The position numbers and the translations under genes were made by a program. A model generated the notes under the pieces. It did not search any database and was not told the DNA's origin. It saw nothing but the letters and a program-made list of their open reading frames with translations. Source: Armatimonadota bacterium (GTDB lineage Bacteria > Armatimonadota > Armatimonadia > Armatimonadales > Armatimonadaceae). Taken from it: a stretch of DNA of 50,947 nt. Shown here piece after piece: positions 40,511-45,687 of this stretch. Position 1 is the stretch's first letter, and every line of letters begins with the position of its first letter. The DNA lies in contig JAPLCP010000150.1 of NCBI GenBank assembly GCA_026392155.1, positions 1 to 50,947 of the forward strand. Reading direction: 5' to 3'.

Positions 40511-41473
40511 GTGAAACGAAACAAAACGCAGTATCGCACCCGCAACTGGAAACAGTATAACACCTCTCTGATCAATCGAGGCAGGATCACCCTTTGGATC
40601 AATCCCGAAGTCGTCAAGGCTTGGAAGGCACAAAGTGACGGACTCCCGCACAAACAAAAGGTCTACAGCGATTTGGCTATCCAGACGGTTCTGGCACTCA
40701 AGGTGCTCTTCAAATTGCCGCTTCGAGCCGCACAAGGACTGGCGATGGATCTGATAGAGATCATGAAACTCGACCTGCCTTGCCCCAACTATTCGACTCT
40801 CTCACGACGCGCCAAGACACTTAAAATCGATCTGGGAGTCCGAAAAACCGAGGGGCCGATTCATCTTTTGGTAGATAGCACCGGGGTTAAGGTGGCGGGC
40901 GAAGGCGAGTGGAAAACACGGCAATGGAAAGCCGAGTACCACCGTACTTGGATCAAACTGCATCTAGGACTTGACCGAAATAGTGGGCAAATCGTGGCAG
41001 CAGTCGTCACAGATGCCAAAGGCGGTGATCCTGACCATTTCCCAGAGGTGCTTGATGCGGTCGAGGGAGAGATCGAAAAAGTGGGAGCCGACGGCATCTA
41101 TGACTCGATAGATAACTTTCGTCGCATCGCTGAGCGGGGAGCTATCCCTATCATCCCTGCCCGTATCAACGCCGCCATCCGTCCTGAACCCGAGGCGGCG
41201 GCTCGCAATCTTGTGGTGGCTGAGATGGATCGTCTTTGGGACGATAAGACGGGTGATGCTCGTTGGAAGGTTGAGAGTGGTTATCATGCCCGAAGCCGGA
41301 TTGAGTCGGAGATGTTCCGTTACAAGCAAGTGATTGGCGATAGTGTTAGCACGAAGACTCTTGCTTCGCAGACCGTGGAGGTTCTACTGGGTTGTCGTAT
41401 TTTGAATCGTTTTCTCGAACTTGGCCGTTGCGAAAGCTACGGTGTCGCCTCGCCCGCCTACCCAGTAACTTAA
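40511..41473 (+). CDS. IS5-family transposase (IS903-like)
   Basis: The 320-aa DDE transposase opens with NWKQYNTSLINRGRITLWI, as in the IS903 group. The first catalytic Asp is in HLLVDSTGVKV and the second in TDAKGGDPDHF. The C-terminal Y(2)R(3)E(6)K signature is complete (YHARSRIESEMFRYK), so the enzyme may be active. It starts with GTG at 40511. The sequence is more GC-rich than the interrupted thioredoxin-fold gene before it. Confidence 0.92.
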   Translation: MKRNKTQYRTRNWKQYNTSLINRGRITLWINPEVVKAWKAQSDGLPHKQKVYSDLAIQTVLALKVLFKLPLRAAQGLAMDLIEIMKLDLPCPNYSTLSRRAKTLKIDLGVRKTEGPIHLLVDSTGVKVAGEGEWKTRQWKAEYHRTWIKLHLGLDRNSGQIVAAVVTDAKGGDPDHFPEVLDAVEGEIEKVGADGIYDSIDNFRRIAERGAIPIIPARINAAIRPEPEAAARNLVVAEMDRLWDDKTGDARWKVESGYHARSRIESEMFRYKQVIGDSVSTKTLASQTVEVLLGCRILNRFLELGRCESYGVASPAYPVT

Positions 41474-45099: not shown

Positions 45100-45221
45100 T
45101 GGGCCTGGAGGGACTCGAACCCCCAACCAAGGGATTACTTGCGGAGAAGATGGAGTTGAACCATCACAAGCCAACCTGCTTCTCCGTGAGTCCCCTGCTC
45201 TAACCATTGAGCTACAAGCCC
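45100..45221 (-). tRNA. tRNA-Ile(CAT)/Met(CAT)-like gene interrupted in its anticodon by 49 nt
   Basis: The first 35 nt (45221-45187) give the acceptor GGGCTTG, the D-arm and GGGGA-CTCA. The last 38 nt (45137-45100) give TAA-TCCCT, a 5-nt variable loop, the T-arm with TTCGAGT, CAGGCCC and discriminator A, with no CCA encoded. Joined, they make a canonical 73-nt tRNA with all stems paired and anticodon loop CTCATAA. The AGCAGG-GGACTCATAA-TCCCTTGGTT pattern resembles tRNA-Ile2(CAU), the lysidine-modified reader of AUA; elongator Met is the alternative. The break lies between positions 35 and 36. The inserted 49 nt (45186-45138) form a 7-bp stem CGGAGAA/TTCTCCG stacked on GATGG/CCATC with the loop TTCAACT, that is, an acceptor/T-arm minihelix. 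It is far too short for a group I intron. Confidence 0.85.
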
Positions 45222-45233
45222 GAAAGCTCACAC

Positions 45234-45262
45234 ATTCTAACCGATGAACCGAAAAACTGCAA
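45234..45262 (-). promoter_or_regulatory. promoter of the interrupted tRNA
   Basis: On the minus strand TTGCAG (45262-45257), a 17-nt spacer and TAGAAT (45239-45234) lie 12 nt before the tRNA 5' end. It overlaps the first codons of the divergent HNH gene. A T-rich ATTTTTG follows the tRNA 3' end. Confidence 0.65.
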
Positions 45263-45687
45263 AACTAAATATGGTATGCCGAATTTGCAGCCTGCCTCTC
45301 AGAGGTCGGCAATCAGCCTTTTGCTCACGTAAATGCAAAGGGAAGTTTCATCAAAGTTATCTTGCACAACAAGACAGAGGGCTTCAGCGTAAACTAGCTC
45401 TCGTCTTGGATTTTGGAGGTTGCTGCATGCGATGCGGCTATGCCACTAACCTAGCAGCATTTTCGTTTCATCATCGTGAACCAACAACCAAATTGTTCCA
45501 GCTAGATCTACGATCACTTTCCAATCGTACTTTGGAGGTGATCCAGCAAGAAGCAGCGAAATGTGATCTGGTCTGTGCAAACTGCCATGCGGAACTACAT
45601 CATCCACAGCTCAACATAAATAATTTCGATATTTCAAAAAATTCAACTTTGGCGGATACTACCGCTATTAGCCCATCAGAAAGATAG
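45244..45687 (+). CDS. HNH endonuclease-like protein
   Basis: The 147-aa protein has an N-terminal zinc-binding Cys set (CRIC and FCSRKCKG) and a second Cys/His core. The core reads CCMRCGY near residue 60, FSFHHREP near 78 and CDLVCANCHAELHH near 107-120, which is the HNH signature with bracketing CxxC pairs. Many stand-alone homing-type or phage HNH nucleases look like this. The start may be ATG 45244 or ATG 45271; the first overlaps the tRNA promoter. Base composition is lower in GC than in the neighbours, suggesting acquisition. It lies 22 nt from, and divergent to, the interrupted tRNA. DNA cleavage is inferred from the motif only. Confidence 0.8.
   Translation: MNRKTAKLNMVCRICSLPLRGRQSAFCSRKCKGKFHQSYLAQQDRGLQRKLALVLDFGGCCMRCGYATNLAAFSFHHREPTTKLFQLDLRSLSNRTLEVIQQEAAKCDLVCANCHAELHHPQLNINNFDISKNSTLADTTAISPSER

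What the first reader, a model, noticed from the sequence alone, without database searches (positions are those of the whole stretch)
45100..45221. tRNA interrupted inside its anticodon by a 49-nt tRNA-like minihelix
Seen: deleting exactly 49 nt (45186-45138) restores a canonical 73-nt tRNA with loop CTCATAA and every arm paired, very like tRNA-Ile(CAU). The insert itself has a 7-bp stem directly continuous with a 5-bp stem and the loop TTCAACT, which obeys the universal T-loop consensus TTCRANY. It is a miniature acceptor/T-arm helix sitting inside another tRNA. A consensus promoter and a T-run flank the gene, so it is probably transcribed. Known: bacterial tRNA introns are large group I elements, and acceptor/T-arm minihelices are minimal RNase P substrates. 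Inference: RNase P could cut precisely at the 5' junction (after CTCA), and the insert might be removed, might make a split tRNA, or might inactivate the gene. Other splice points would give CAC (Val) or CGT (Thr) anticodons.
Basis: partly seen in the sequence, partly recalled or inferred. Interest (0 to 1): 0.93.

Follow-up and report, generated by a model that had tools for sequence, protein, structure and literature searches.

The report
Tiny tRNAs as introns inside tRNAs
Some bacteria and many bacteriophages carry tRNA genes split in the anticodon by a 43-68 nt "mini-tRNA", most likely an unrecognised kind of intron that the cell's tRNA-trimming enzymes cut out and an RNA ligase seals, whereas the only bacterial tRNA introns known so far are large self-splicing ones.

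Summary
Window 45221-45100(-) is a tRNA-Ile2(CAU) gene split between positions 35 and 36 by 49 nt.

It is not a curiosity of one gene. The same draft genome has three more tRNAs split the same way: Lys(UUU), Arg(UCU) and Leu(UAA). A congener has orthologous inserts in Ile2 and Lys but uninterrupted Arg and Leu genes. Those empty alleles show the exact exon junctions.

A sequence-pattern scan that assumed no insert structure found the same architecture in phage tRNAs: Asn(GUU), Lys(UUU), Arg(UCU) and Ile. About 20 phage lineages have it, including the cultured Agrobacterium phage Atu_ph07.

In all 29 inserts a 7-bp acceptor helix starts exactly at the 5' junction and stacks on a 5-bp T-arm with invariant G53-C61 and C56. 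Most linkers carry a D-loop-like GG. Tails are discriminator-plus-3 (often NCCA) or shorter. Covariation is very strong.

Best reading: a new class of small tRNA-derived tRNA intron. RNase P would cut the 5' splice site, a 3' tRNase the other end, and an ATP-dependent RNA ligase would join the exons. Such ligases occur in all three intron-bearing bacterial genomes and 10 of 11 testable phage lineages. Splicing itself is inferred; no transcript data were available.

The parts
45187..45221 (-). 5' exon of tRNA-Ile2(CAU), nt 1-35, ends ...GGGGACTCA
   Evidence: uninterrupted homologues L011/L012
45138..45186 (-). 49-nt mini-tRNA insert (candidate intron)
   Evidence: orthologous insert in congener L010
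45180..45186 (-). 5' strand of acceptor-like stem CGGAGAA; its first base is the predicted RNase P cut / 5' splice site
   Evidence: 7/7 pairs with 45148-45142
45166..45179 (-). linker GCAGGTTGGCTTGT with GG at linker position 4, resembling D-loop G18-G19
45149..45165 (-). T-arm GATGG-TTCAACT-CCATC
   Evidence: 5/5 pairs, TTCRANY loop; covariation in the family
45142..45148 (-). 3' strand of acceptor-like stem TTCTCCG
45138..45141 (-). 4-nt tail CAAG (discriminator + 3, NCCA position); its end is the 3' splice site
   Evidence: tail length 4 in 15 of 24 independent inserts
45100..45137 (-). 3' exon TAATCCC...CCCA of tRNA-Ile2
45234..45263 (-). weak sigma-70-like promoter TTTGCA-18-TAGAAT
   Evidence: 9/12 match

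Best explanation
The insert is a small, tRNA-derived, non-self-splicing tRNA intron. Shown: a miniature tRNA (acceptor stem, T-arm, D-loop-like linker, NCCA-like tail) sits in the anticodon loop of tRNAs, usually between nt 35 and 36, in one bacterial family and in many phages. Inferred: when transcribed it folds as an independent tRNA-like domain. RNase P cuts 5' of its acceptor stem, which is the 5' splice site, leaving a 3'-OH on the 5' exon. A 3' tRNase (RNase Z or similar) cuts at or just after the discriminator/CCA position, leaving a 5'-phosphate on the 3' exon. The anticodon stem holds the two exons together, and an ATP-dependent Rnl-type RNA ligase seals 3'-OH to 5'-P, giving a normal tRNA and a free mini-tRNA.
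For: (1) Four interrupted tRNAs in this genome: Ile2, Lys(TTT), Arg(TCT), Leu(TAA). No uninterrupted Lys(TTT), Arg(TCT) or Leu(TAA) was found among the other tRNAs of the 96.6%-complete draft. (2) Natural empty alleles in the congener G001 for Arg (CTTCTAA) and Leu (CTTAAAA) show exactly what excision yields. (3) Orthologous inserts diverge with pairing kept: Leu in G000 vs G004, Lys in G000 vs G001. (4) The viral scan required only a D-arm, CTNN...TAA and a T-arm. It returned about 17 unrelated loops with the 7+5 helix starting exactly at the 5' junction. A covariance model built only on bacterial inserts scores several of the phage inserts at E 1e-11 to 1e-5. (5) Twenty-six distinct inserts: 93.3% of pairs standard vs 51.6% shuffled, covariation 1.073 vs 0.230, 0/500 shuffles. 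G53-C61 and C56 are invariant. (6) Linker GG at positions 3-5 in 13/20 vs 3.5 expected, 0/20,000 shuffles. (7) Tails of only 1, 2 or 4 nt, including ACCA, GCCA and TCCA. (8) RNA ligases in G000, G001 and G004, with an RNA ligase/HD-PNK/RNA ligase cluster in G000 and G001. One ligase (216 aa) was found only in the three intron-bearing genomes among loci held. Phages: 10/11 intron lineages vs 5/16 control tRNA phages have PF09414 or PF09511, p=0.003. (9) Atu_ph07 was published as having tRNAs for all amino acids except Asn and Thr (PMC6102473); its Asn gene is present as an interrupted gene. (10) RNase Z and tilS are present in G000.
Against: No RNA data of any kind. The 3' cut is not uniform (tails 1, 2 or 4 nt), and a 4-nt tail without CCA is not where a standard RNase Z cuts. 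One phage lineage (L306 group) has no detected ligase and imperfect helices (5/7, 4/5). RNA ligases also occur in relatives without such introns and may serve RNA repair only. G001 has array copies of Lys(TTT) and Leu(TAA), and G000 has a divergent CAT tRNA, so some interrupted genes may be dispensable. Alternative folds of the isolated 49-mer are competitive.
Confidence: 0.68

Rival explanations
1. The insert is removed, but by another route: an unknown endonuclease leaves 2',3'-cyclic phosphate/5'-OH ends that RtcB, or HD-PNK plus ligase, joins.
For: RtcB is present in G000, G001, G004 and most relatives; HD-PNK, an end-healing enzyme type, lies next to two ligases.
Against: RtcB does not track the introns (15 of 21 genomes have it). 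The exact coincidence of the 5' junction with a tRNA-like 5' end, the NCCA-like tails and the elbow motifs point to tRNA-processing enzymes instead.
Confidence: 0.15
2. The mini-tRNA is the product of interest (a small RNA or decoy for tRNA-binding enzymes) and the host tRNA is sacrificed or only regulated.
For: Some inserts keep NCCA tails and full T-arms; phages make tRNA mimics (general knowledge).
Against: The exons stay perfect tRNAs with paired anticodon stems; Lys, Arg and Leu lack another intact gene in G000; the linker varies from 9 to 33 nt without conserved sequence beyond GG.
Confidence: 0.08
3. Decayed pseudogenes or integration scars in anticodon loops.
For: Anticodon loops are common recombination sites (general knowledge); presence is patchy within the genus.
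Against: Covariation, conserved exons, identical architecture in about 24 lineages, inserts shared between species.
Confidence: 0.04
4. A reduced relic of a self-splicing group I intron.
For: Group I introns interrupt tRNA-Ile2 in phylum relatives (L013).
Against: The Rfam group I model does not match the window; 43-68 nt cannot hold the catalytic core; Ile2 group I-type insertion in relative L034 is at 33|34, not 35|36.
Confidence: 0.02

Closest known systems
Bacterial tRNA group I introns (cyanobacterial tRNA-Leu(UAA), proteobacterial tRNA-Ile/Arg)
   Same: Interrupt the anticodon loop of tRNA genes in bacteria; the Leu(UAA) insert is at 34|35.
   Different: Those are self-splicing, 200+ nt, with a catalytic core; these are 43-68 nt tRNA-like hairpins with no catalytic core. 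A review calls group I/II introns the only significant departure in bacterial tRNA genes (PMC4033280).
Archaeal/eukaryotic enzymatically spliced tRNA introns (bulge-helix-bulge, splicing endonuclease)
   Same: Short introns; protein/RNP cleavage plus ligation (inferred here).
   Different: Position 35|36 or 34|35 rather than 37|38, no bulge-helix-bulge, intron is itself a tRNA-like domain, ends coincide with tRNA-processing sites.
Minimal RNase P substrates (acceptor/T-arm minihelices, external guide sequences)
   Same: Acceptor plus T-arm 12-bp helix; predicted cut 5' of the acceptor stem.
   Different: Natural, nested inside another tRNA, used (inferred) to define a splice site.
HARP-Rnl3 partnership (PMC12153264)
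   Same: Proposed functional pairing of an RNase P activity with an RNA ligase.
   Different: That is protein-only RNase P with Rnl3 in extremophiles; the paper asks why RNP RNase P is not used with a ligase, and this is a candidate case with PF09414/PF09511-type ligases.
Bacterial/phage RNA repair (T4 Pnkp-Rnl, Pnkp-Hen1, HD-PNK + ligase)
   Same: Same gene types occur in the intron-bearing genomes; substrate would be a nicked anticodon loop.
   Different: Repair answers damage; here the cuts would be programmed.

Membership tests
tRNA gene (host) | Cloverleaf covariance-model match after removing the insert | tested here: met
   57.7 bits vs cut-off 29; uninterrupted homologues
Group I intron | Match to catalytic core model RF00028 | tested here: not met
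   No match in window, while L013 in the same phylum matches
BHB tRNA intron | 4-bp helix between two 3-nt bulges at the exon-intron junctions, position 37|38 | tested here: not met
   Junction at 35|36; anticodon stem and minihelix separated by 4 and 7 nt with no central helix
BHB tRNA intron | tRNA splicing endonuclease gene | not tested
   -
RNase P substrate | Stacked acceptor/T-arm helix of 12 bp, T-loop C56 and G19-type partner, junction at the first acceptor base | tested here: met
   Structure only: 7+5 pairs, C56 invariant, GG in linker
RNase P substrate | Actual cleavage | not testable with these tools
   -
RNase Z / CCA-end substrate | 3' junction after discriminator (N73) or after NCCA | tested here: inconclusive
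   Tails of 4 nt (15/24), 1 nt (5/24), 2 nt (4/24); CCA in several. T. maritima RNase Z can cut after CCA (PMC7479834)
Ligase-dependent intron | 3'-OH/5'-P RNA ligase gene in the same genome | tested here: met
   G000, G001, G004; 10/11 phage lineages
Ligase-dependent intron | Spliced tRNA observed | not testable with these tools
   -

The most novel reading that the evidence does not exclude
A third mode of tRNA splicing, besides self-splicing and the endonuclease/BHB pathway: an intron that is itself a (mini-)tRNA, whose splice sites are set by the ordinary tRNA end-maturation enzymes RNase P and a 3' tRNase, and whose exons are joined by an Rnl-type ligase. It would be shared by some bacteria and many phages and overlooked by standard annotation.
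Probability: 0.55. Interest if true: 0.97.

Novelty: categorically new. Interest (0 to 1): 0.93.

Why it matters
It would add a new kind of intron and a new splicing logic built from universal tRNA-processing enzymes. It would give a physiological role to some of the many phage and bacterial RNA ligases whose substrates are unknown. It also explains 'missing' tRNAs in phage annotations such as Atu_ph07 Asn, and offers a simple, immediately testable system (cultured phage, small RNA-seq, in vitro RNase P). The series from near-complete nested tRNAs (64-68 nt) to 43-nt minihelices shows how such an intron could arise from a tRNA inserted into a tRNA.

Tried and rejected
Group I relic, BHB intron, pseudogene and assembly artefact (see rivals). 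The first automatic alignment (A1) was misaligned and replaced by an equal-length one (A2). R1 phylum hits of 23-26 bits (L082-L085) were inspected and are ordinary or intron-interrupted tRNAs without the minihelix. The R2 hit L367:1419 (25 bits) is an ordinary tRNA, so scores below about 28 bits need inspection; A4 contains this false row and was not used for counts. RtcB does not track the introns. L117 in G001 has another interrupted tRNA that does not fit the minihelix model. The second Atu_ph07 candidate (68176-68259) has an imperfect helix and an ambiguous product (Thr or Lys).

Full report
WHAT IS THERE. On the minus strand of the window, 45221-45100 is a tRNA gene that the Rfam tRNA model recognises at 57.7 bits with a large insert in the anticodon loop. 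Default ARAGORN does not report it; with introns allowed it does. Removing 45186-45138 (49 nt) gives a 73-nt tRNA-Ile2 with loop CTCATAA. Same-family genomes G005 and G010 carry that uninterrupted gene, with exons 97% identical. A second species of the genus (G001) has the same interrupted gene, 98% identical over 122 nt, which rules out an assembly error.

NOT ALONE IN THE GENOME. The tRNA search of the genome showed three more over-long tRNAs (118-130 nt). They are Lys(TTT) on C102 (CTTT|57 nt|TAA), Arg(TCT) on C216 (CTTC|45 nt|TAA) and Leu(TAA) on C194 (CTT|47 nt|AAAA). None of the other tRNAs read has an uninterrupted Lys(TTT), Arg(TCT) or Leu(TAA) anticodon. For Ile2, a divergent CAT tRNA (L069, in a small tRNA cluster) leaves the question open. 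All four inserts start with a 7-nt acceptor-like strand, continue through a linker into a T-arm, and end with the complementary 7-nt strand plus 2 or 4 nt. TilS, needed to read AUA with a CAU tRNA, and RNase Z are encoded.

COMPARISON WITH RELATIVES. The congener G001 has orthologous inserts in Ile2 and Lys, but its Arg(TCT) and Leu(TAA) genes are uninterrupted (CTTCTAA, CTTAAAA), with exons nearly identical to those of this genome. These are natural empty sites that define the junctions. G004, another genus of the family, has an insert in Leu(TAA) at the same site. Its T-stem is AAAGG/CCTTT against GAAGG/CCTTC here, a compensated change. A covariance model of the inserts found only these three genomes among 291 of the phylum and separated them clearly from ordinary tRNAs (lowest true hit 58 bits, next 26). 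The phylum is probably Armatimonadota, judged only from the abundant DUF1559-type prepilins (inference).

PHAGES. A DNA pattern for an interrupted tRNA (D-arm, CTNN, 40-70 nt, TAA, T-arm), which says nothing about the insert, was run to completion on 2.9 million viral contigs and hit 77. About half restore a paired anticodon stem and contain the same architecture. About 17 unrelated sequences came from that scan and a few more from an earlier, truncated one. Hosts are tRNA-Asn(GTT) most often, then Lys(TTT), Arg(TCT), Ile(CAT) and possibly Ile(TAT). The model trained only on the bacterial inserts recognises several of the phage ones, for example L311 at 45.5 bits, E 3e-11. The two sets were therefore found and checked by independent criteria. 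One member is in the cultured 490-kb Agrobacterium phage Atu_ph07 (MF403008 323904-324024, unannotated). Its authors reported 33 tRNAs covering every amino acid except asparagine and threonine (PMC6102473). The interrupted gene is tRNA-Asn. A second interrupted candidate (Thr or Lys) lies at 68176-68259, about 1 kb from an RNA ligase gene.

ANATOMY ACROSS 29 INSERTS. The junctions were fixed by restoring a 7-nt anticodon loop. With the 5' junction so fixed, the acceptor helix starts at the first insert base in every case. Acceptor pairs are 184 of 203 and T-stem pairs 139 of 145; random re-pairing of partners gives 93 and 84, with maxima of 122 and 103. A formal count on 26 distinct inserts gives 93.3% standard pairs versus 51.6% shuffled, covariation 1.073 versus 0.230 (0 of 500 shuffles), and all slid registers collapse. 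The only invariant positions are those that are universal in tRNA T-arms: the G53-C61 pair and C56. Linkers are 9-33 nt. Thirteen of 20 independent inserts with a normal T-loop have GG at linker positions 3-5, against 3.5 expected and never reached in 20,000 shuffles. This looks like the D-loop G18-G19 that docks on the T-loop. In L377 and L443 the linker reads like a D-arm plus a short anticodon arm, so these inserts are nearly whole tRNAs of 64-68 nt (by eye; MFE folds only partly agree). Tails are 4 nt in 15 of 24 independent inserts (ACCA, TCCA, ACAA, ACCG, CCGA, CAAG ...), 1 nt in 5 and 2 nt in 4. Thus the insert tends to run from nucleotide 1 to nucleotide 73 or 76 of a mini-tRNA. Four inserts have a non-standard T-loop (GGCAGCA, GGCAGTA, AGCATTA) and lack the early GG; the three GGCAGNA ones may form the elbow differently.

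HOW IT MOST LIKELY WORKS. Shown: structure, junctions, conservation, distribution. Inferred: RNase P cuts before the acceptor stem and so defines the 5' splice site. A 3' tRNase cuts at the discriminator or CCA position; T. maritima RNase Z does cut after CCA (PMC7479834), but this step is the weakest because tails of 2 nt and non-CCA 4-nt tails are not standard RNase Z sites. The resulting 3'-OH and 5'-P exon ends, held by the anticodon stem, are those sealed by ATP-dependent RNA ligases. G000 and G001 have a conserved cluster of PF09414 ligase (233 aa), HD plus P-loop kinase protein (364 aa) and a second PF09414 ligase (216 aa). The 216-aa ligase has a 49%-identical homologue in G004 and none in the other relatives' ligase loci held here. 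Among phages with long contigs, 10 of 11 intron lineages encode PF09414 or PF09511 ligases against 5 of 16 tRNA-bearing controls (Fisher p 0.003).

WHAT IS KNOWN. [quoted passage not shown] Ten literature searches found no description of tRNA-like introns in bacteria or phages; the library lacks most subscription papers and all preprints. A 2025 opinion paper reports co-occurrence of protein-only RNase P with ligase Rnl3 and asks why RNP RNase P is not used with a ligase (PMC12153264); the present introns are a candidate answer. Works like: an enzymatically spliced tRNA intron. Member of: neither group I (tested, not met) nor BHB introns (structure not met).

LIMITS. No transcript evidence. 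The genome is a draft and unnamed. The bacterial distribution outside the phylum was not surveyed properly. Spliced product, enzymes and order of events are inferences. Why the introns persist (control of tRNA supply by ligase level, protection of the anticodon before splicing, or neutral persistence) is open.

Noticed in passing
L013 1226-1456; L034 250-800; L082 680-1551; L026 1-100: tRNA-Ile2 and tRNA-Leu(TAA) of phylum relatives carry large introns. L013 matches group I (RF00028); L034 (33|34), L026 and L082 look like group I-type insertions that did not reach the Rfam cut-off; L082 encodes an ORF.
   Followed up: partly
G000 C181 13226-14267 (L052); G001 C1 962685-964406 (L116); G014 C1 1204-1213 kb (L171): Arrays of divergent extra tRNAs (9 to 18 genes); in G014 the array lies with RtcB fragments and an RNA ligase, like a mobile tRNA/RNA-repair island.
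   Followed up: partly
L117 558-686 (-): A tRNA in G001 with an insert of about 50 nt in the anticodon region that does not fit the minihelix model, in a Trp/Met tRNA cluster.
   Followed up: no
L375, L380, L385, L404; L364, L414; L353/L354; L358/L390; L342; L305; L366: Phage tRNAs with other recurrent 35-70 nt inserts, several with a restored anticodon stem but no acceptor/T-arm minihelix; possibly further intron types (e.g. a shared GGTCAGTAAGGGGTCAGTCT-like motif in L375/L380).
   Followed up: no
L440, L324, L337, L446: Inserts whose 7-nt 'T-loop' is GGCAGCA, GGCAGTA or AGCATTA instead of TTCRANY; in the GGCAGNA ones the GG that other inserts carry in the linker may have moved into the loop (swapped elbow contact?).
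   Followed up: partly
MF403008 68176-68259 (-): Second interrupted tRNA candidate in phage Atu_ph07 (Thr(TGT) or Lys(TTT)), about 1 kb from RNA ligase AUZ94893 (66519-67163, annotated hypothetical).
   Followed up: partly
window 40511-41470: DDE transposase gene (PF13737/PF01609) about 4 kb from the tRNA.
   Followed up: no
L109 3141-5543; L110 3026-5431: Conserved RNA ligase / HD-polynucleotide kinase / RNA ligase gene cluster, also partly in G002/G008.
   Followed up: partly
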